Positions 2,813 through 35,000 of a stretch of DNA of 55,068 bases are shown piece after piece. Made by a program: the position numbers and the translations under genes. The stretch comes from an uncultured Pseudomonadota bacterium (GTDB taxonomy: Bacteria > Myxococcota_A > UBA796 > SXON01). The notes below the pieces were generated by a model that saw only the letters and a program-made list of their open reading frames with translations, did not search any database and was not told the origin of the DNA. Numbering within the stretch: the stretch's first letter is position 1; every line of letters starts with the position of its first letter. The stretch spans positions 1 to 55,068 of the forward strand of contig CAIXRH010000025.1 of NCBI GenBank assembly GCA_903921785.1, given 5' to 3'.

Positions 2813-3169
2813 ATGCTGCTCCTGCTCGCGTGTGTCCTCACCCCGGACTCCACGGACCCGGTCGTCGCGACGGTGGCGTGCGACACGCTCAGCTGCGGAA
2901 CGGACGAGGTCTGCATCGTCGAGGAGTACGAGCCGGCGTGCGAGAACCTCTACGACACGGGGGTGTCCTGCCCCGAAGGCACCACGCTCACGATGTGTGG
3001 CGGCGCGGGCATCGCGTGCTGCTGCGAGCCGCCGCCGCCGGCGTCCTACAGCTGCGCCACCTGCACCGGCGAGCCGTCCTGTGACTGTGTGACCTGTCCG
3101 GCAGACAAGGCGTGCGAGGCGACCGGCACCACCGGGACGTTCCGGTGCGCGGAGATGCCGAAGCCGTAG
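2813..3169 (+). CDS. Small Cys-rich lipoprotein
   Basis: 118 residues, with an exceptionally short lipoprotein signal, MLLLLAC, giving a lipidated Cys at position 7. No alternative in-frame start lies in the preceding 30 nt. The mature chain holds at least 15 cysteines, several in CC or CxC pairs (CCCEPPPP, CATCTGEPSCDC, CVTCPADKAC), which suggests a disulfide-knotted extracytoplasmic domain. A purine-rich GAGAGG precedes the ATG by about 6 nt. I do not recognise the family; C-x2-C spacing in CPADKAC resembles follistatin-like or Kazal-like Cys modules of Myxococcota surface proteins, but this is only a resemblance. It is the first gene after repeat copy C1. Confidence 0.65.
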   Translation: MLLLLACVLTPDSTDPVVATVACDTLSCGTDEVCIVEEYEPACENLYDTGVSCPEGTTLTMCGGAGIACCCEPPPPASYSCATCTGEPSCDCVTCPADKACEATGTTGTFRCAEMPKP

Positions 3170-22738: not shown

Positions 22739-23905
22739 CTACTCGAACGCCTGGATCCCAGTAATCCACCGCCCCAGGATGAGGTTGTGGATGTCGTGGG
22801 TGCCCTCGTAGGTCTTCACGGACTCGAGGTTCGCCATGTGGCGCATCACCGGGTACTCGTCGAGGATGCCGTTGGCGCCGTGAATGTCACGGGCCACGCG
22901 GGCGATCTCCAGGGCGATGTCCACGTTGTTCATCTTGGCGAGCGAGATGTGCTCGGGGATGATCGTGCCGTCGTCCTTCATGCGGCCGCACTGCAACGCG
23001 AGGAGCTGGCCCTTGGTGATCTCGCGGAGCATCCAGGCGAGCTTGTTCTGCACGAGCTGGAAGCTCGCGATCGGCTTGCCGAACTGGATGCGGGAGAGGC
23101 TGTAGTCCTTGGCCGAGTGGAAGCAGGCCATGGCCGCGCCGAGCGCGCCCCACGCGATGCCGTAGCGCGCGTTGTTGAGGCAGGAGAACGGCCCCTTCAG
23201 GCCCTTCACGTGCGGCAGGATGCGATCCTTGGGGATGCGACAGTCCTGGAAGACCAGCTCGCTGGTGACGCTGGCGCGGAGCGAGTGTTTGCCGTGCATC
23301 TCGGGAGCGGAGAACCCGGGGTCGCTCTTCTCCACGATAAAGCCACGGATCTCGCCATCGAGCTTCGCCCAGACGATCGCGAGGTCGGCCACCGTGCCGT
23401 TGGTGATCCACATCTTGGCGCCGTTGAGGACGTAGCTGTCGCCATCGTCGACGGCCTTGGTGATCATCCCGCCGGGGTTGCTGCCGAAGTCGGGCTCGGT
23501 GAGGCCGAAGCAGCCGATGAGGTCGCCCTTGGCCATGCCGGGCAGGTACTTCTGCTTCTGCGCTTCCGAGCCGTGCTTCCAGATCGGGAACATGCAGAGC
23601 GAGCCCTGCACGGAGCAGAAGCTGCGGATGCCGCTGTCGCCCCGCTCGAGCTCCTGGCACACGAGGCCGTAGGCCACGTTGCTCATGCCGGCGCACTCGT
23701 AGCCGTGGAGGTTCACGCCGAGGAGCCCCATCTCGCCCATCTGCTTGACCAGGTGGCGCGGGAACGTACTGTTGCGGCAGTGTTCTTCGATGATGGGGAT
23801 GACGTTGTCGTCCACCCAGGAGCGCACGAGGTCCCGGACCGCCTTCTCCTCTTCGGAGAGCAGCGTGTCCATGTTGTAGAAGTCCAGCCCGTCGAACTTG
23901 GCCAT
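22739..23905 (-). CDS. gcdH: Acyl-CoA dehydrogenase, glutaryl-CoA dehydrogenase type
   Basis: 388 residues, the size of glutaryl-CoA dehydrogenase. FAD and substrate segments are present: GCFGLTEPDFGSNPGGM, MWITNGTVADLAIVWAK, ARYGIAWGALGAAMACF and SRIQFGKPIASFQLVQNKLA. The catalytic base is E367 in VKTYEGTHDIHNLILGR. GcdH oxidises and decarboxylates glutaryl-CoA to crotonyl-CoA, passing electrons to electron-transfer flavoprotein. The class III aminotransferase gene lies 2 bp upstream on the same strand, which fits a lysine or 5-aminovalerate degradation pathway that ends at glutaryl-CoA. Substrate is inferred from similarity to the GcdH branch. Confidence 0.88.
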   Translation of the reverse strand: MAKFDGLDFYNMDTLLSEEEKAVRDLVRSWVDDNVIPIIEEHCRNSTFPRHLVKQMGEMGLLGVNLHGYECAGMSNVAYGLVCQELERGDSGIRSFCSVQGSLCMFPIWKHGSEAQKQKYLPGMAKGDLIGCFGLTEPDFGSNPGGMITKAVDDGDSYVLNGAKMWITNGTVADLAIVWAKLDGEIRGFIVEKSDPGFSAPEMHGKHSLRASVTSELVFQDCRIPKDRILPHVKGLKGPFSCLNNARYGIAWGALGAAMACFHSAKDYSLSRIQFGKPIASFQLVQNKLAWMLREITKGQLLALQCGRMKDDGTIIPEHISLAKMNNVDIALEIARVARDIHGANGILDEYPVMRHMANLESVKTYEGTHDIHNLILGRWITGIQAFE

Positions 23906-23907
23906 GG

Positions 23908-25224
23908 CTACACCTGGGTGAGAGCGTGAAGGGAGGTGGCGAACAGGTCGACCGCCGTAGCGGCTTCCTCTTCGGTGAGCGTGAGCGAGGGACAGAAACG
24001 TACCGTGTTCTGGCCCGCGCCGAGGATCACCATACCGGAACGGAAGAAACAGTCCATGACCACGGCGTTGCGCAGGTCGTTCGCCCGCTCCTTGGTGGTG
24101 CGATCGGCGACGAGCTCCACGCCGATCATCAGCCCCTTGCCGCGGATGTCGCCCACGTTGGGGTGATTGCCGACGCGCTCGCGGAGCATGCCCATCATCT
24201 GCTCGCCGACGACCCGCGCGTTCTCCACGAGGGACTCTTCGAGCAGGTCGAGCGTGGCGTGGGCAGCGGCGCAGGCCACCGGGTTGCCGCCGAAGGTGCT
24301 GGCGTGCGCCCCGGGCTTCCAGCGCATCACCTCCTCGCTGGCGATCGTCGCCGACAGCGGCATGCCGCTGGCGATGCCCTTGGCGAGGCTGATCACGTCG
24401 GGCTTCACGCCGAAGTGGTCGTAGGCGAACATCTTGCCGGTGCGCCCCATGCCGGCCTGCACCTCGTCGAAGACGAGGAGGATGCCGTGCTCATCCGCCA
24501 GCTTACGCAGCTCGGGGAGGAAGTCGGCCGGGGGCACGATGTAGCCGCCTTCGCCCTGGATCGGCTCCACGAAGATCGCGGCCACCTCGTTGGGCGGACA
24601 GATCGTGCGGAACAGCTCCTTGAGATGGTCGATCGCCATCTTGGTGGCGCCCGGGCCGTGGCGGTACGGGTCGGGGTACACGGTGTGGGTGACCGGAAGG
24701 AACGGGCCGAAGCCCTCCCGCTGGCGGGCCTTGCTCGCGGTGAGCGAGAGGGCGCCCATCGTGCGGCCGTGGAACGCATCCAGGAACGCGATGAAGTGTT
24801 TCCGGCCGGTGCACCAGCGGGCGAGCTTGAGCGCCGCTTCGTTGGCCTCGGTGCCGCTGTTGCCGAAGTACACCCGACACGCGTCGCCGCGCACCGGCTG
24901 CATCTTCACCAGGCGATCCGCGAGGCGGCCCTGCACCGGGTAGAAGAAGTCGGTGCCGCTCATGTGGATGAGCTTCCCGGCCTGCTCCGTGATCGCGGCC
25001 ACCACCCGAGGATGGCAGTGGCCCGTGCTGGTCACGGCGATGCCGGCCGACATGTCGAGGAACTCGTTGCCATCCGGATCGGTGATCCACACGCCCAGGG
25101 CGCGCTCGGCCACCAGCGGATGATCGCGGGTGTAGCTGGGGGAGACGGCGGCATTGCTCCGCTCGATGAGCGTCCGGGCGAGAGGGCCCGGCAGCTCGGT
25201 GCGCAGGACGGGACGGCGCGACAC
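23908..25224 (-). CDS. Class III pyridoxal-phosphate aminotransferase (4-aminobutyrate/5-aminovalerate type)
   Basis: 438 residues from a GTG at 25224-25222 with GGAG 5 nt upstream; an ATG at 25308 would add 28 Pro/Gly-rich residues not usual for the family. Fold-type I features are clear: YFGNSGTEANEAALKLAR, AFHGRTMGALSLTASK, VEPIQGEGGYIVPP, DEVQAGMGRTGKMFA, and the PLP Lys K282 in SLAKGIASG. It likely moves the terminal amino group of an omega-amino acid such as 4-aminobutyrate or 5-aminovalerate to 2-oxoglutarate. The adjacent gcdH, only 2 bp downstream, favours the five-carbon substrate. An ornithine or acetylornithine role cannot be excluded. Confidence 0.85.
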   Translation of the reverse strand: MSRRPVLRTELPGPLARTLIERSNAAVSPSYTRDHPLVAERALGVWITDPDGNEFLDMSAGIAVTSTGHCHPRVVAAITEQAGKLIHMSGTDFFYPVQGRLADRLVKMQPVRGDACRVYFGNSGTEANEAALKLARWCTGRKHFIAFLDAFHGRTMGALSLTASKARQREGFGPFLPVTHTVYPDPYRHGPGATKMAIDHLKELFRTICPPNEVAAIFVEPIQGEGGYIVPPADFLPELRKLADEHGILLVFDEVQAGMGRTGKMFAYDHFGVKPDVISLAKGIASGMPLSATIASEEVMRWKPGAHASTFGGNPVACAAAHATLDLLEESLVENARVVGEQMMGMLRERVGNHPNVGDIRGKGLMIGVELVADRTTKERANDLRNAVVMDCFFRSGMVILGAGQNTVRFCPSLTLTEEEAATAVDLFATSLHALTQV

Positions 25225-25359
25225 GGACACTCCGGAGGGGCGGGCGACTATCTGTCCGGAGGGGTCGGCGCCACCTCCCGAGGGGGGCGCGTGTCGGCGC
25301 GCGGTCACCGGGCCGCGGGTCCGCTCACCGGCCGCGTTTGCCCTTGCTGCGTCAAGGGC

Positions 25360-26047: not shown

Positions 26048-29000
26048 CTACGCCGCGAAGACCGCCGTTGCCACGACCCGGCCCTGGAACCGGCCCACGC
26101 GCACCCGCAGCGGCGCCCCGCCGAGCGCCCGGTGCGCCTCCGCGACCTCCCCGGACAGGCGAACCGTGGCTCGGCCCTCCACGAGCTCCACCACGTCGAT
26201 CTCCCGCGGCGAGAGCGCCATCCCGGCGCCGAGCGCCTTGAGCACGGCCTCCTTCACGCTCCAAACGGCCGTGCGCTCCTCGTCGGTGCGGGCCCACGCC
26301 TGCTCCCCCGGCGTAAACCACTCGGCCACGAAAGAGTCCGAACGAGGCTCCACCTTCTCCATGTCCACGCCCGCGCGGGCCCCGCGCACCGCCAGCGCGA
26401 GGGCCTCGCCGTCCACGTGGGTGATGCTCACCTCGAGGTCGTGCACGTCCGTCACCACGGGACGCCCGCTCGGGGCGCGCTCCACCCGGAACGGCCCGTG
26501 GACCAGCGCCGCGACCGCACGGTTCGCGGCGACCTGCCCGGCCAGCCGGTCGGCCTGCCGCTTCGCCGTTCCCCGGGAGGTCAGCATCGCCCGCTCCTTG
26601 TCGGGGAGCTCCGCCGCGGCGTCCGCCGCGACGGCGATCGAGGCGCTCGGCCAGCCGCCCTCGGGCACCGGCAAACGGTCACCAGGGTCCAACGGTCCCT
26701 TCTCCACCATCCGGAAGCCCCGCACGCGCATCACCCGGCCCTCAGAGCCGTCCACGTCGATGTCGTAGACGCCCGCCCGCACGTGCACCACGACCTGCAG
26801 CGACTCGCCCTCGACGGCGGAGCGCTCGAGCTCCACCGCGTCGATGCTGGCCGGGAGCGCCATCACGCCCTCGATCGCCATCCGGTGCAGCCCGGCCGCC
26901 TGGAAAGCGGCTTCCAACACCAGCGGATCCGTCAGCAGCCCCTCCGCGATCGGCCCATGTTCGACCACGGCCTCGGCGAGCAGCCCCTGCACCGCGACGG
27001 CCTCGGCGCCGCGGAGCACCTGGAACCGCGCTCCGTGGAAGTAGCGGCGGTAGATGTCCTTCTGCGAAACTCGCTCTTCGGGGAAGAAGGCGCTGGGGAG
27101 CAGCGGCAGGAGCGGCATCTCGGCGAGCTGCACGCGCGCCTCGAAGTGCGAGGTCACCTGCTCGCGGCCGTTCTTGAGCTTCCGGGTGCTCCGGAGCACA
27201 CACTTCCAGGCGCCGTCTTCGTCGGGATCGGCGGTGATCTCGATGCGGGTCGGCTCGTCGCGGTGGAGCTTCAGGGGCGCGGAGAACGTCACGTCCTCCA
27301 GGCCGGCGTAGCGGCCCCGCGGGTTGGCCGCGAGCGCCGTGGCGACCATCATCTCCATCCCCATCACCCCCGGGAGAACCGGGACGTTGTCGATGGCGTG
27401 GTCCGCCATCCAGGGGTCGGAGTGCAGGTCCATCGTGCGGCGACCGATCGCACGGTCGCCGACGAGCTCCACGGAGTCCAGGAGCGGGTGCAGCGCGGGC
27501 GACTGGAAGTCTCCGAGCTTGCCCGCCACCACCAGCTCGCCGGTGACGCCGGCGGCGATGAGGTCGCAGAGCACGCGGGCGCCGGCCCGGGGCGGGAGGA
27601 GCTCCACGCCGCGGCTGGTGAGGAGCTGCTCCATGCCGCCGCGTACGGCCATGCCCACGTCCGCCCAGGCGGTCCAGGCGATGTGCAACGAGCGGGCCCG
27701 GGTGAGGCACACCTGCGCCATCGCCTCGTTGGCCGCGCTGTAGTCGACCTGGCCGGCGTTGCCGAAGCGCCCGGCGATGCTGCCCATGCTCACGAAGAAC
27801 GTGGAGGGGTCGAGCGAGGTGGCGAGGGCCAGCCCGCCTTCCGCCTTGCCGTCGAAGACGCGACGGAACGCCGCCACGTCCTTGTCGGGGAGCAGCCGGG
27901 ACTCTTCCACGCCGGCGCCGTGCACCACCAGGTCGAGCCGCGCGTGCTTCTGCCGGAGGTCGGCGATCATCGCCTTCACCGCGGCGGGGTCGGCGAGGTC
28001 GAGGCTCCGCAGCTCCACCGTGGCGCCGAGCTTCCGCATCGCCTCCACGTTGGCCCGGGCCTCCTCCGCCACCCGCATCGGCTTGAGCTTGTCCTCGATC
28101 ATCTTCGGGGTGACCCGCTTCTCCGTCTTGCCGAGCTCCTCCTTGATGCGAGCGCGGGTGACCTCTTCGTCCAGCGGCACGGCTCCGGGCAGCGTACGAG
28201 CGACGAGCACCAGCGTGCACGGCCCCCGACGGGCGATCTCGAACGCAACCTGCGCGGTGATGCCGCGCGTCCCGCCGGTGAGAACGGCGATCGGGTGCGC
28301 CGGCCAGTGGCCCTGCGTGGGCACGGCCTCCACCGCGAGCGCGACGACCTCGCGCTCGCCTGGCCCGACCCACACCTCGTTGGCGCGGTCGCCCTCGCCG
28401 AGCTCGTCGACCAGGGCGCGCGCGGCGTCCTGGGCGCCCCAGCCCGCGCGCACCGTCACCACGCGGGCGCGGCACGTCGGCCATTCGCGGCCGAGCGCCT
28501 TGCAAAGGCCGGCGCGGGCGCCGTTGTCGCGGACGACGGTGAGGTCGGTCGCCGGGGTGAGCGCCGAGACCCACTGTCGGGGGCGATGACCGTCGAGGTG
28601 GCGCGCCTGCTCGAAGAGCTCGAGCAGGGGAATCCCGCAGTCGATCACCACGTCCGGATCGCCCTCGGAGCGGGCGCCGGCGGCGACGATCTCCGAGCGG
28701 AGCTCGTTCGCGAGCTCGCCACTGCCGAGCACCCACACCACCTGCCCGCGCAGCGTGCCCACGGGCAGCTTGACCTGGCTCACCCGCACCGGGCGGCGAA
28801 CCCGGAAGTTCTCGGGGAGCTGGTCGAGGTCGTGGGGCTCCGGCGGCGACACCAGATCGGTGCCGGGCACGAGCGTGATGCTCGGGGTGAGGGACGCAAG
28901 CGCGACCGAGGCGGAGGCCGGCGCGCCCACGACGGACGCCGGCGCGGGCGGGGCCACCTTCGCCGCTTCGGGCGCCGGCGGCGCGAGCAGCAGGGTCGGG

Positions 29001-32000
29001 GCTTCCGCGTCGAGCAGCAGGGTCGGGGCCTCCGCCGCGGCGGCCTGCGCCGCCACCCGCTCCGCCATCCACCCGGCGAGCTTCTCCACCGTGGGGTAGT
29101 CCGCGAGCTTGAAGCTATCGTCCCGCTGCAGACCGTACGCGTCGCGAACCTCGGAGAAGATCTCCGCCTGCTTCACAGTGTCGATGCCGAGGTCGGCTTC
29201 CAGCTCATACGCCGGGTCGATCTCCCCCGGCTCGTAGCCGGTGCGGGCGGCGACCACGTCGATCAGCTTCGTGAGCACCGCCGCACGGTCCGGCACCCCG
29301 CCGACGGACGCCGGCTTCGGCGCGGGCGTCGGCGTCGGCGTGGGAGTCGGCGCAGCCGCCGGCGCAGCTGCCGGAGCGGGTGCGGCCGGCACGACCGCCA
29401 CCGCCTTCGCCACGACCGACGGCGCCGGAGCGCCCCCGCCACCCGAAGGACCACCGGACGGCCCGCTCGGCGGCGTCCCGCCCTGCTCGGCCACCTTGTC
29501 CGCCATCCACCCGGCGAGCTTCTCCACCGTGGGGTAGTCCGCCAGCTTGAAGCTGTCGTCGCGTTGTAGACCGTACGCGTCGCGCACCTCGGCGAAGATC
29601 TCCGCTTGCTTCACGGTGTCGATGCCGAGGTCCGCCTCCAGCTCGTAGCTCGGGTCGATCTCGCTCTCATCGTAGCCGGTCTTCGCCGCCACCACGCTCA
29701 CCAGCCGCTTGAGCACCGCGGCCCGGTCGGGCACCCCGGCCCCGCCGGTCGCGACGGCCGCAGCCGTCGTGGCCGAGCCCGCCGCTGGCGCCACCGTCAC
29801 ATCGCCGCCGGTCGCGGCATCCCCGCCGCCCACGCCGCCCCCCTGCTCCGCCACCTTGCCCGCCATCCACCCGGCGAGCTTCTCCACCGTGGGGTAGTCC
29901 GCCAGCTTGAAGCTGTCGTCCCGCTGCAGACCGTACGCGTCGCGCACCTCGGCGAAGATCTCCGCCTGCTTCACGGTGTCGATGCCGAGGTCGGCCTCAA
30001 GCTCGTAGCTGGGGTCGATCTCGTCGCGCCCGTAGCCGGTCTTGGCGGCCACCACGCCGATGAGCTTGTCGAGCACGTCCGCCTTGCTGACGCCTGCGGC
30101 ACGCGCGACCGGGGCCGCGACGGGGGCCACGACCGGCGCCGGAGCGGCCGCCACCGGCTTCGCCGTGGGGTCCACGACGAACCGGAGCTGACGATGCTCC
30201 ACGATCACCCGGCCGGCGCCGCCCGCCACCTTCTGCGCCCAGGCCGCGGCCATCCGCGGATCGGACACCCGCGCGTCGCCATTGGCGATCTTCTTCCACG
30301 CCGCCAACGCCAGCTGGCTGCCGAACCCCGCCGCCAGTCGCAGCGCGAACTTCACGTCGTAGTGGCCGCCGGTGCTCAAGGTGAGCGGCCCGAGGTCGGG
30401 GTCCGGCTCCTTGAGGTTGGGGATCGGCGGCACCAGCTGGTACTGGAGCGCCTTCACGGCCACCGTGTCCTCCACGCCGGCGCCCATCGGGTGGCCGGTG
30501 TAGCCCTTGGTGTTCGCGATGATCATGCGGCTCGCAGCCGCGCCGAACGCGTGAGGCAAGCTGGCCATCTCGGCCGCCGCGGAGCCGCCACGGGCCGGGG
30601 TGTACGTCTCGTGGCTGAGGAAGACACACTGTTCGGCGAACTGCGCGTGGGTCACGCCCGCGGCAGCGACCGCCTTGTCCGCGAAGGTCTTCACCTCCCG
30701 ACGGATGTGCTCCGCGTCCAGGCGGGTGCCGTGGAACGCGCTGTTCGCGATGTGCGTGCCGAGGAGCTCGGCGATCGGCACCATGCCGCGCGCTTCCACG
30801 TCGCCCTTGCGCTCGAGAATGAGCCCCACCGCGCCCATGCCGAGGATCATCCCATGCCGGCGACGATCAAAGGGCAACGCCGCGTTCTCGACCTCGGCCG
30901 TGGTGGTGGCGGCGCCCGCGGCCATGAACCCGGCGCCGATCCACTCCAGCATGTTCTCGTTGGTCACGTCGTCGGCACCGACCACGATCACGCGCTCACA
31001 ACGCCCACACCGCAGCCAGTCCTCGGCCACGGCGAGGGCCTGGGTGGTGCTGGCGCACGCGGCGTTCACCGCGGCGTTCGGGCCGCGCGCGCCGAGGAAC
31101 TGCGCGAGCTGGCTGTGCCCCATGGTGAGGATCTGGAACAAGAACCGACGATCGAAGTGACCTTCGCCGTCGCCGCCGTTGAGCCCCATCTTCTGGATGA
31201 ACTGGTCGTACCCGGCGAACGCGCTGCCGAAGACGATGCCGGTCGTGTCCCGGAGGGACTCGGGGAGCGCCCAGCCGGTGGCCACGGCCTTGCCGGTGGT
31301 GGTCTGACGCCACGTCCGCACCAGGGGGATGCCCGCGTCCTTCAACGCCTCCAACGCCGCGGCGAACGCCAACTGCGTCGAGATGTCGAGGCTTCGCACC
31401 AGGGACGCGTCCACGCCGTAGTCGGCCACGAGGTCGAAGTGGGTCTTCTGGCCGGCGAGGCGGATGACCTGCTCCCGCGTCTTCACCGGGAGGAAGCCGC
31501 CTTCGCCCGTCTTCGGGTCCTTGGTGAGCCGGACCAGGTTCTTCGCGATGAACTTGTCCTGGTTGTCCTCGCTCACCTTGCCGATGCGGTTCTCGCCCTT
31601 GAGCATCCGCTGGATGCCGTCGGGCTCAAAGACCTCGGCACCGCCAGGAAGCCCGAGCGAAGCCCCTGAACACACGATCACGTCGGTGCGGAGGCCTGCG
31701 CTGGCCGGGGCCATCGGCGCCGGGATCGGACGCGAGGGCGCGGCGGAAACCATGGAGGGGGTCGCCGCGGGCGCGGAGACCGGGGCGAGCCCCGCCAACG
31801 CCGGACCCTGCGCGGCTTGGAACGCGGTCCACGCGGCGCCGAGGAAGCCCTGGAGCGCGGGGAGCATGGCCGTGGCGAAGGTGGCGCCATCGAGGCCCCG
31901 GAGGTCCTGCCCGGCGATCTGAGCCAGGAACTTCGCGGCGGAGTCGGCGGGGAGGGTGGGGGCGCCGACGTGCACGACCGGGGCAGGATGCGCGGCGGCC

Positions 32001-35000
32001 GGCGCGGACGGCGCATGGGGGACGTGCACCTCCCCGTCCACGGTGCCGCGGCGGGCGGGCATCGTGGAGGGGCGGGTGGACCCCGCTTGTTGCGCCGCGT
32101 AGTCCACCAACTGGCGGAGCGTACGGTGCTGGCCCATCCGGAAATGAGGGTCGGGCTCCAGCTTCAGCGAATCGCGGACCTGACTGATGATGTCCGCGGT
32201 CTTCACCGTGTCGATGCCGAGGTCGGCCTCGATGTCGAAGTCGAGCTGCAGCTCCTCGATGGCGAAGCCGGTGCGCCGGGCGACGATCTCCAGGATCGTC
32301 CGCGCGATCTCCGGCGTGCCGACGCGCTCCGCTTCGGCGGCCACGGCCGGGGCGGTGTTGCGGCCCGCCAGGAGCGGCGTGGTGCTGCGACGGGGGAGGA
32401 GCGGCGCGAAGATGTCGGTCGTCTTCTCGGGGACGCCCGCGATCGGGAACCCAAGCACATACAGCTCAGCCAGCGCGTCGATGAAGCTCGGCACGCCGCC
32501 GCGCTTCGGCTGGTTCGTGTAGAGCGCACGGTGGGGGCGATGCTTGAGGATCTGAACCACGAAGCCCGACAAAGCGCGCTTGGGTCCACACTCCACGAAG
32601 ATCCGCGCCCCGTCGGAGTACATGCGCTCGACCTGCGCGATCCACTCCACGGGTGCCGCCACCTGCAACGCCAGGTTCTCGATGATCTGCTCGCGGGCGC
32701 CTTCCCCCGTCGGGTAGTACCGACTGTCGACGTTGGTGGTGATCGGCCGCAGCGGCTCACGGATGTCGAGCGTCTCGAGCACCCGCTTGAGCGGCGCGCT
32801 GGCCGGAGCCACGATCCGGCTGTGGAACGCGTGGCTCACCGGCAGCGGGTAGACGGTGATCCCACGGGACTTGAAGAGCTCCGAGGCCGCCTCCACCGCG
32901 TCGGACTCGCCGGCGATGACCGTCTGCGTCGGGCAGTTCTTGTTCGCCGGAACCACGTAGCCAGGAACCTCGGCGAGGACCTCCATGACCACGTCGGTGC
33001 TCGCGGCAATACCGGCCATCTTGCCCACATCGTCGAGCTTCACCGCCGCCATCTCGCGACCGCGCGCGCTCACGGCGACCAGCGCGTCCCGGAAGCTGAG
33101 GATGCCGGCCGCGACCAGCGCGCCGTACTCCCCGAGGCTGTGCCCGGCGACCATGTCCGGACGCACCCCGTACGCGGAGAAGAGGCGGAGGATCGCCACG
33201 TCTACCGTGAGGGTCGCCGGCTGAGAGATCGCCGTGTCCCGGAGGCGATCGAACTGCTCCTCCTCCGACATGTCCGGGTCACGACGGATGAGCGACGTCA
33301 GCGAGCGCCCGAGCAGCGGGGTCATCACCTCGTCCGCCTCGGCGAACGTCGCCGCCACGATCGGGAATTGCTCGGCCAGATCGAGGCCCATCCCGACGTA
33401 CTGGCTGCCCTGTCCGGTGAAGAGGAACGCGAGCTTGCCGTCGCACGGCACATCCTCCAGCGCGATGCCGCGCTGGCGCACGAGGTCGTAGCCCTTGCCC
33501 TTCTTCACCGCGGAGACGACCTTCTCCACCTGCGAAGCCAACTCTTCCTGATCGACGGCGCACGCCGCGACCCGGAGCGGGGCGTCCGGCTCAAACGGCG
33601 CGGTCTCGCCACGCTCCACCAGCGCGGCGCAGCGCTCCACCATCTCCTCGGGGGTATCCGCCGACAACGCCCACATCCCCTTCGGCACCGACACACTGGT
33701 GCTGGGACGGGCCGGCGCGGCGACCGGCGAGGGATTGGGGGCGCCATACGAGGCCGCGCTCCGAGCCACCGCCCCAGGCGCAACGACCGTCACCTCGTTC
33801 TTCGACCCGCCCCCCACCGAGGTGGTGATCGGAGGCCAGGCCGAGACCGCCACCGTGGTGCTCGACGCCTTCGCCATCCCCGGGCGGAAGCCTTCGAGCA
33901 CCATGTGGAAGTTGGTGCCGCCGAAGCCGAACGCGCTCACGCCGGCGAACCGCGGGCCGCCGTGCTCCCACGCCTCGGGCGCGGTCTGCACCTGCAGGGG
34001 CACCACGCCCAGGTCGATGTCCGGCCGCGGGTTCTTGTAGTTGATGCTCGGCGGGAGCACGCCGTGGAACAGCGCGAGGCTCGTCTTGAGCGCGCTGGCC
34101 GCGCCGGCCGCGCTCTTGAGGTGGCCGATGTTGGACTTGATCGAGCCGATCCGGGCGGCCCGCGTGCGCCTCCCCGGGCCGATGAGCTCGGTGAGCGCCT
34201 CCACCTCCACCTTGTCGCCCACCACGGTGCTGGTGCCGTGGCACTCGAAGAGGTCCACGTCCGCGGGGTCCACGCCGGCGTTCTCGTAGGCTCGGCGCAA
34301 CGCTCGCTTCTGACCTTCGGGGTTGGGCGCGGTGATGCCCTTGCCCTTGCCGTCGGAGCTGCCGCCGAAGCCCCGGATCACCGAGTAGACCTTGTCGCCG
34401 TCGCGCAGCGCGTCCGAAAGCCGCTTGAGCACGAGGATGCCCACGCCCTCGCCCATGACAAAACCGTTGGCCTTCGCGTCGAAGGGGCGGCTGCCATCCG
34501 GAGAGAGCGCCCCGATCTTGGAGAACTTGGCGTAGGTCGGCACGCCCATGCTGCGATCGGCGCCGCCGGTCACCGCCATGTCGAAGTCGCCGTCCTGCAG
34601 GCCCTTCACCGCCGCCTGGATCGCCGCCATCGAGCCGGCGCAGGCCGCGTCGGTCGTGAAGTTGGGGCCGCCGAGGTTCAGCGCGTTGGTGATGCGCCCG
34701 GCCACCACGTTGGCCAGCTCGCCCGGCATCGAGTCTTCGGTGATCGGCGGGATGTTCCGCTTGAGCTCGGTCTCGTAGGCGTCGAGGATCGCGGCCCGGG
34801 ACTCCGTGGGCAGGGCGGCGAAGCCCTTGACCTCGGAGAGCGCCTTGCGCATCGCCGGGAACATCACCCGGAGGGTGTACTCGTCGGTGATCTCCCCACC
34901 CATCGAGTTGCCCAGGATGGTGGCCACACGGCTGCGATCGAAGTCCTTCGCCTCACCGTAGCCGGCGTCCTCCAACGCGTCGGCCGCGGCCTCCAGCGCC

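What the first reader, a model, noticed from the sequence alone, without database searches (positions are those of the whole stretch)
29177..32209. All four acyl-carrier domains have Thr where the phosphopantetheine Ser is expected
Seen: ACP1 reads LGIDTVKTADI and ACP2-4 read LGIDTVKQAEI; aligned with LGIDSIKRVEI of PUFA synthases, Thr (1289, 2033, 2153, 2299) replaces Ser. Known: Sfp- and AcpS-type enzymes normally modify Ser. Inference: either the fused PPTase has evolved to modify Thr, or these carriers work differently. Four out of four domains with Thr argues against random decay.
Basis: partly seen in the sequence, partly recalled or inferred. Interest (0 to 1): 0.82.

Follow-up and report, generated by a model that had tools for sequence, protein, structure and literature searches.

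The report
Threonine-armed carriers in lipid synthases
A giant bacterial lipid-making enzyme, and a whole family of relatives, carries threonine at the exact spot where the cofactor arm is normally hung on serine, which suggests an overlooked way of arming such enzymes, though the modification has not yet been shown chemically.

Summary
In detail: all four carrier domains of the 3352-aa synthase (window 26048-36106, minus strand; KS-AT-ACP-KS2-ACP-ACP-ACP-KR-DH-PPTase) have Thr at the phosphopantetheine position. It is neither decay nor private to this genome. In 47 related loci found with seed peptides that exclude that residue, 129 of 133 scored carrier copies have Thr and 4 have Ser; nothing else occurs. 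The preceding Asp is invariant, and Thr is the first residue of helix II in the predicted fold. Thr-type synthases form one branch of a KS tree, apart from ordinary Ser-type PUFA synthases that often share their genomes; members occur in Myxococcota, a Woeseiaceae genome and Nonomuraea. KS, AT and KR active sites are intact, and a complete Sfp-type PPTase is fused or encoded nearby. E. coli ACP S36T is reported as unmodifiable, and ten paper searches found no natural Thr carrier. Best reading: Thr is the phosphopantetheine site and a linked PPTase arms it. The modification itself is not shown. Against strict dependence on the fused PPTase: one relative (L049) has lost it, and a second Thr synthase in this genome has none.

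The parts
26048..36106 (-). Synthase gene, 3352 aa: KS-AT-ACP-KS2-ACP-ACP-ACP-KR-DH-PPTase
   Evidence: ORF; Pfam; architecture shared with relatives
33884..35269 (-). KS1 (aa 280-741)
   Evidence: C489, H623, H662 conserved in 58, 58 and 59 of 59 rows
32582..33427 (-). Acyltransferase (aa 894-1175), GHSLGE
   Evidence: S990 and H1092 39 of 39
32087..32308 (-). ACP1 with LGIDTVKTADI
32207..32209 (-). Thr1300 codon ACG, expected phosphopantetheine site
30227..31639 (-). Second KS domain (KS2), Cys-His-His kept
   Evidence: C1684 54 of 54, H1832 52 of 52, H1872 49 of 49
29840..30085 (-). ACP2 with LGIDTVKQAEI
29975..29977 (-). Thr2044 codon ACC
29480..29728 (-). ACP3 with LGIDTVKQAEI
   Evidence: predicted fold
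29615..29617 (-). Thr2164 codon ACC; first residue of helix II in the model
29045..29290 (-). ACP4 with LGIDTVKQAEI
29177..29179 (-). Thr2310 codon ACT
27659..28285 (-). Ketoreductase (aa 2608-2816)
   Evidence: S2776, Y2789, N2793 40 of 40
26732..27514 (-). Dehydratase-like hot-dog region (aa 2865-3125)
   Evidence: PKS_DH_N at aa 2873-2971; H2903 40 of 40, E3065 and Q3069 38 of 38
26051..26689 (-). Fused Sfp-type PPTase (aa 3140-3352)
   Evidence: ACPS (over cut-off) and 4PPT_N (below cut-off); G3246, D3248, E3250, K3285, E3286, K3290 53 of 53; model pLDDT 91.2, top PDB match Sfp 4mrt

Best explanation
This is a large iterative lipid/polyketide synthase of the PUFA-synthase kind, in a lineage whose carrier domains use Thr instead of Ser as the attachment residue for 4'-phosphopantetheine. 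A PPTase that travels with the synthase, here fused to its C-terminus, transfers the arm from CoA to the Thr hydroxyl; the armed carriers then take malonyl units from the AT and pass chains through KS1, KS2, KR and DH. Shown by sequence: Thr at the canonical site, its conservation, the invariant Asp before it, intact catalytic sites, and genetic linkage to a PPTase. Inferred: that Thr is modified, that the linked PPTase does it, and that the Ser-to-Thr change may keep these carriers apart from the housekeeping PPTase and the Ser carriers of the same cell.
For: Thr in 129 of 133 and Ser in 4 of 133 scored ACP copies of the loci, no third residue. Thr codons are mixed (ACC 62, ACG 62, ACT 3, ACA 1, ACN 1), so the amino acid is what is kept. 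Among 215 non-redundant ACPs (183 Thr, 32 Ser; partly fetched with Thr-specific patterns) Asp at -1 is invariant and no Ser column is conserved in the Thr set. The AF2 model of ACP3 (pLDDT 90.8) starts helix II at residue 43, the Thr; sequence alignments put it on the Ser of solved ACPs, and Foldseek matches ACPs. Ser replaces Thr only at ACP1, in L049, L050, L052 and L053, whose downstream ACPs keep Thr: the two residues swap at one site. KS1, KS2, AT and KR active residues are conserved, so substrates on a thiol arm are expected. Of the 37 loci that hold the synthase's 3' end, 33 have the PPTase in the synthase ORF and 3 (L074-L076) in a nearby ORF. Of 20 genomes with the Thr motif given to, 19 have exactly two PPTases, one of them in the Thr-synthase ORF. 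In L076 and L095 the cluster is acyl-CoA dehydrogenase, Thr synthase, acetyl-CoA carboxylase, PPTase. Thr synthases fall on one side of a branch in the KS1 tree (40 rows against 8 Ser rows, SH-aLRT 89).
Against: No chemistry is shown. E. coli AcpP S36T is stated to be unmodifiable and non-functional (PMC3340395, passages), so ordinary PPTases need not accept Thr. L049 lost most of the fused PPTase yet keeps Thr in ACP2 and ACP3. The second Thr synthase of this genome (L085, contig C352, 5' end missing) shows no fused PPTase, and only two PPTases were found in the genome, so it would need one in trans. The PPTase tree needs six label changes; two rows (L109, L117) were wrongly labelled, and L063, L076, L077 and L095 are not placed firmly with the rest.
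Confidence: 0.74

Rival explanations
1. Thr is the attachment site, but the cell's general free-standing PPTase arms it, and the fused domain is redundant or serves other carriers.
For: L049 lacks an intact fused PPTase and keeps Thr carriers; the second Thr synthase L085 has none; the own genome has a free-standing PPTase on C138.
Against: The linked PPTase keeps every catalytic residue in 53 of 53 rows and is fused or nearby in 36 of the 37 loci that hold the 3' end. In one search the only two genomes with a single PPTase (G023, G027) lack the Thr motif. E. coli S36T is not modified by that cell's own enzymes (PMC3340395).
Confidence: 0.13
2. The Thr domains are unmodified structural or docking domains; chains ride on a separate Ser carrier or on CoA.
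For: A natural Thr carrier has no precedent in the searches made; S36T makes E. coli ACP non-functional.
Against: Only Thr or Ser occurs at the site in 133 copies; the Asp before it is invariant; no PP-binding match other than these four lies on this contig; a dead site would not be held to hydroxyl residues nor appear as Ser at ACP1 of some relatives.
Confidence: 0.08
3. Thr bears a different modification, or the arm sits on a non-canonical residue.
For: Only that the residue is unusual.
Against: The linked enzyme is a PPTase with the Sfp fold and motifs; no conserved alternative Ser.
Confidence: 0.03

Closest known systems
Secondary lipid synthases of Type R (Shulse and Allen 2011, PMC3098273; sections 7 and 8 read)
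   Same: One PfaA-like protein with KS-MAT-CLF-tandem ACPs-KR and a PPTase alongside; in Koribacter an acetyl-CoA carboxylase gene lies between synthase and PPTase, as in L076 and L095. The P1b' PPTase motif hShxH they give for Types M-T is met by VSITH here.
   Different: Here an extra ACP before KS2, a DH and a fused PPTase; KS2 keeps Cys-His-His. The paper's text holds neither 'threonine' nor 'serine'. No Type R reference sequence was tested here.
PUFA synthase PfaA (NCBIfam TIGR02813)
   Same: Best NCBIfam match; KS-AT-ACP-KR-DH logic; related ACPs with LGIDSIK
   Different: 865.8 bits against a cut-off of 1010.1; Thr not Ser; KS2 inserted; PPTase fused
Enediyne PKS (CalE8, SgcE; PMC3107222, passages read)
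   Same: Single-chain iterative synthase with its own PPTase domain (fused position recalled)
   Different: One ACP with HMSSI and Ser971; no second KS and no tandem ACPs (recalled)
RerA/RerB of Rhodococcus erythropolis (PMC11563203, passages read)
   Same: Iterative PfaA-like synthase with tandem ACPs and a PPTase next to it; inactivating KS or PPTase abolished the colour
   Different: KS-AT-ACP-ACP-KR-DH, PPTase on a separate protein; no 'serine' or 'threonine' in its text
Fungal FAS alpha subunit PPT domain
   Same: PPTase fused to the megasynthase it activates (recalled); sequence and fold matches
   Different: AcpS-like half-size domain; Ser carrier (recalled)

Membership tests
Acyl carrier domain (Pfam PF00550) | Family score over curated cut-off | tested here: met
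   95.1 bits, four stretches; each of the four over cut-off
Acyl carrier domain (Pfam PF00550) | Ser at start of helix II as attachment residue | tested here: not met
   Thr in all four; helix II starts at Thr
Acyl carrier domain (Pfam PF00550) | Carries 4'-phosphopantetheine | not testable with these tools
   Needs mass spectrometry
PPTase superfamily (PF01648), Sfp type | Score, fold and catalytic motifs | tested here: met
   54.3 bits against 25; D3248, E3250, K3285, E3286, K3290 53 of 53; Foldseek top hit Sfp 4mrt, E 2.7e-10
PfaA PUFA synthase (TIGR02813) | Curated NCBIfam cut-off | tested here: not met
   865.8 of 1010.1 bits
PfaA PUFA synthase (TIGR02813) | KS-AT followed directly by tandem ACPs | tested here: not met
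   One ACP, then KS2, then three ACPs
Type R secondary lipid synthase | KS-MAT-CLF-ACP(3-6)-KR plus PPTase | tested here: inconclusive
   Same order with additions; KS2 has Cys-His-His; no reference Type R sequence was reached
Enediyne PKS (PKSE) | KS-AT-ACP-KR-DH-PPTase with one ACP (recalled) | tested here: not met
   Two KS and four ACPs

The most novel reading that the evidence does not exclude
A whole lineage of bacterial lipid synthases, found here in three phyla, has moved the phosphopantetheine arm from Ser to Thr and carries its own Thr-accepting PPTase, giving a carrier system chemically separate from the cell's Ser carriers.
Probability: 0.6. Interest if true: 0.86.

Novelty: new variant of a known kind. 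Interest (0 to 1): 0.73.

Why it matters
Attachment of phosphopantetheine to Ser is treated as universal, and S36T is used as a non-functional control in E. coli. A natural, lineage-wide Thr carrier would break that rule, give annotation tools a missing motif, and could supply PPTase-carrier pairs that work beside the normal ones for labelling and synthase engineering. It is directly testable with one expressed 90-residue domain and one PPTase domain.

Tried and rejected
Random decay or a sequencing error: rejected, because Thr is kept in 129 of 133 copies with several codons. Another Ser at the helix II start: rejected. A product from the neighbourhood: of ten window neighbours compared with the loci, only distant acyl-CoA dehydrogenases (26-30% identity) turned up, in L059, L074, L075, L076, L095 and in L079 (a non-synthase locus of this genome); the aminotransferase and one small ORF matched only L093, which is the window itself. 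The product stays unknown. Papers: ten searches gave no natural Thr carrier; only open-licence PMC full texts were searched, so subscription papers are not covered. Whether the Type R synthases of Roseiflexus, Koribacter or Solibacter have Thr could not be tested: no such sequence was reached.

Biases to know: L121-L153 were fetched with a pattern that demands a Thr codon, so they are no evidence for the Thr:Ser ratio. (193 Thr, 4 Ser, 6 gaps of 203 rows, L001-L077) holds duplicates of the same genomes and the window's own copies. mixes all sources. In one search a loose regular expression printed L or ? for some ACPs: L040's ACP1 is Thr and L052's is Ser. In one search L109 and L117 were labelled 'other' although they look like synthase pieces. 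The conservation rows include synthases of other types where the models reached them. L076 and most other loci are metagenome-assembled, so their taxonomy may be wrong.
Full report
WHAT IS THERE. The minus-strand ORF 26048-36106 encodes 3352 residues. Pfam gives KS, AT, PP-binding (four stretches), KR, PKS_DH_N, ACPS and a weak 4PPT_N below its cut-off. With domain models built from this protein, whole relatives such as L031, L032, L034, L036 and L039 read KS1-AT-ACP-KS2-ACP-ACP-ACP-KR-DH-PPTase, the order seen here. The four Thr residues are at 1300, 2044, 2164 and 2310, with codons ACG, ACC, ACC, ACT.

HOW GENERAL IT IS. One search scanned one genome for each of 84,980 species with six seed peptides, none of which includes the Thr, and gave 47 loci. 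In them 129 of 133 scored carrier copies have Thr, 4 have Ser, and one more copy is cut before the motif. Every Thr is followed by Val; the Ser copies by Ile (3) or Val (1). The four Ser copies are the ACP1 of L049, L050, L052 and L053; the later ACPs of the same proteins have Thr. A DNA pattern for DLG, then Ile, Val or Met, then DT, Ile, Val or Met, KQ hits 68 of 282 Myxococcota genomes and 1 of 398 genomes drawn from the phylum of L076, that one being the genome of L076 itself; the reversed control pattern hit none in the rows shown. The pattern demands Gln at +3, so these are lower bounds. With the site opened to Ser, Thr and codon look-alikes, 53 of 58 genomes of the order have a match; in the rows listed (the list is cut), read by eye, the Thr codons are followed by Val and the Ser codons by Ile, so two carrier classes live side by side.

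IN THIS GENOME. Pfam PP-binding matches 15 places. Four are the window's (Thr); two lie on C352 and are Thr, with a third Thr copy there found by my own model; seven are Ser; the last two, C50:2512 (MDSV) and C275 (AESL), are Ser too. The two C236 domains are the ordinary LGIDSIKRVEI kind. Two PPTases were found: the fused one and a free-standing one in a 242-residue frame on C138.

STRUCTURE. An AF2 model of ACP3 from 51 sequences has pLDDT 90.8 and helix II at residues 43-57; residue 43 is the Thr (numbering). Foldseek finds acyl carrier proteins at the top. Sequence alignment sets the Thr on the Ser of PigH, CurA and other solved carriers. The fused PPTase model (pLDDT 91.2, 33 sequences) is closest to Sfp in complex with CoA and a carrier (4mrt).

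IS THE MACHINE ALIVE? In the aligned rows KS1 keeps C489 (58 of 59), H623 (58 of 59) and H662 (59 of 59); KS2 keeps C1684 (54 of 54), H1832 (52 of 52) and H1872 (49 of 49); the PPTase keeps D3248, E3250, K3285, E3286 and K3290 (53 of 53). In the loci AT S990 and H1092 are 39 of 39; KR S2776, Y2789 and N2793 are 40 of 40; the DH region keeps H2903 (40 of 40), with Glu at 3065 (38 of 38) where an Asp is expected from recalled motifs. So the enzyme has the sites that need an acylated thiol arm, and its carriers offer only Thr for it.

LINKED PPTASE. Of the 47 loci, 33 show the PPTase in the synthase ORF or its 3' piece, and L074, L075 and L076 have one in a nearby ORF. Of the other 11, ten are cut by the end of the held DNA before that point, and L049 ends at the start of the PPTase. 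The Nonomuraea locus L095 has a PPTase about 5.5 kb downstream of its synthase. L076 (Woeseiaceae) and L095 (Nonomuraea gerenzanensis) share acyl-CoA dehydrogenase, synthase, acetyl-CoA carboxylase and PPTase in that order; Shulse and Allen report a carboxylase gene between synthase and PPTase in Koribacter Type R. One search was given 24 genomes that I chose among those with handles: of 20 with the Thr motif, 19 have exactly two PPTases, one in the synthase ORF, and G047 (two Thr-motif matches) has three, none on the contig of its synthase; the four without the motif have one (G023, G027), two (G016) and three (G024). A tree of 56 PPTase domains puts the C138 type in its own branch of eight (99) and most linked ones on another (88), with L063, L076, L077 and L095 unsure.

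ORIGIN. In a KS1 tree of 52 rows, 40 Thr rows are one side of a branch (SH-aLRT 89) and 8 Ser rows the other; 4 rows carry no label, three of them on long branches. The simplest reading is one Ser-to-Thr switch at the base, with later Ser at ACP1 in L049/L050 and, separately, L052 (L053 is too short for this tree).

MECHANISM. I hold that the linked PPTase moves phosphopantetheine from CoA to Thr. Shown: position, conservation, linkage, intact sites. Inferred: the reaction. The Ser at some ACP1 sites speaks for a site in use, since a dead site would not stay restricted to hydroxyl residues. Why Thr is open; keeping the housekeeping PPTase or a carrier hydrolase away from these domains is a guess.

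PRINT. PMC3340395 (passages) states that E. coli ACP(S36T) cannot be modified by 4'-PP and fails to complement; PMC13343975 and PMC9456370 (passages) use S36T as a loss-of-function form. PMC3098273 (sections 7 and 8) describes synthase types up to T without the words serine or threonine. PMC13291983 (passages) notes the conserved Ser in a PUFA-like synthase. Ten searches gave no natural Thr carrier; the library lacks most subscription papers.

VERDICT. A real, conserved trait of a synthase lineage, unreported as far as these searches reach: a new variant of a known kind. Chemistry is the missing step.

Noticed in passing
L085 (own genome, contig C352:8000-17414): A second Thr-type synthase in the same genome: three ACPs with LGIDTVKQAEL, then KR and DH, 5' end missing at the contig edge, no fused PPTase.
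   Followed up: partly
window 30227-31639: KS2, at the place called CLF in published Type R synthases, keeps Cys, His and His in all aligned rows, so the protein may have two working condensing domains.
   Followed up: partly
L049:4025-13258: Synthase whose fused PPTase is cut off at its start, with Ser at ACP1 and Thr at ACP2 and ACP3: a natural test of dependence on the fused PPTase.
   Followed up: partly
L076:3173-19941 and L095:8384-24101: A shared cluster of acyl-CoA dehydrogenase, Thr-type synthase, 1.8-kilo-residue acetyl-CoA carboxylase and PPTase in a gammaproteobacterial genome and an actinomycete.
   Followed up: partly
L031, L040, L052, L065, L072: Records titled Klebsiella pneumoniae MAG encode these Myxococcota-like synthases; the titles look like mislabelled assemblies.
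   Followed up: no
window 26732-27514: The DH-like region has Asn where the HxxxG motif has Gly and a conserved Glu where Asp is usual (motifs recalled), so its chemistry may differ.
   Followed up: no
window 22739-25308: A class III aminotransferase (acetylornithine type) and an acyl-CoA dehydrogenase lie downstream on the same strand, but the aminotransferase was not found near the synthase in any related locus.
   Followed up: partly
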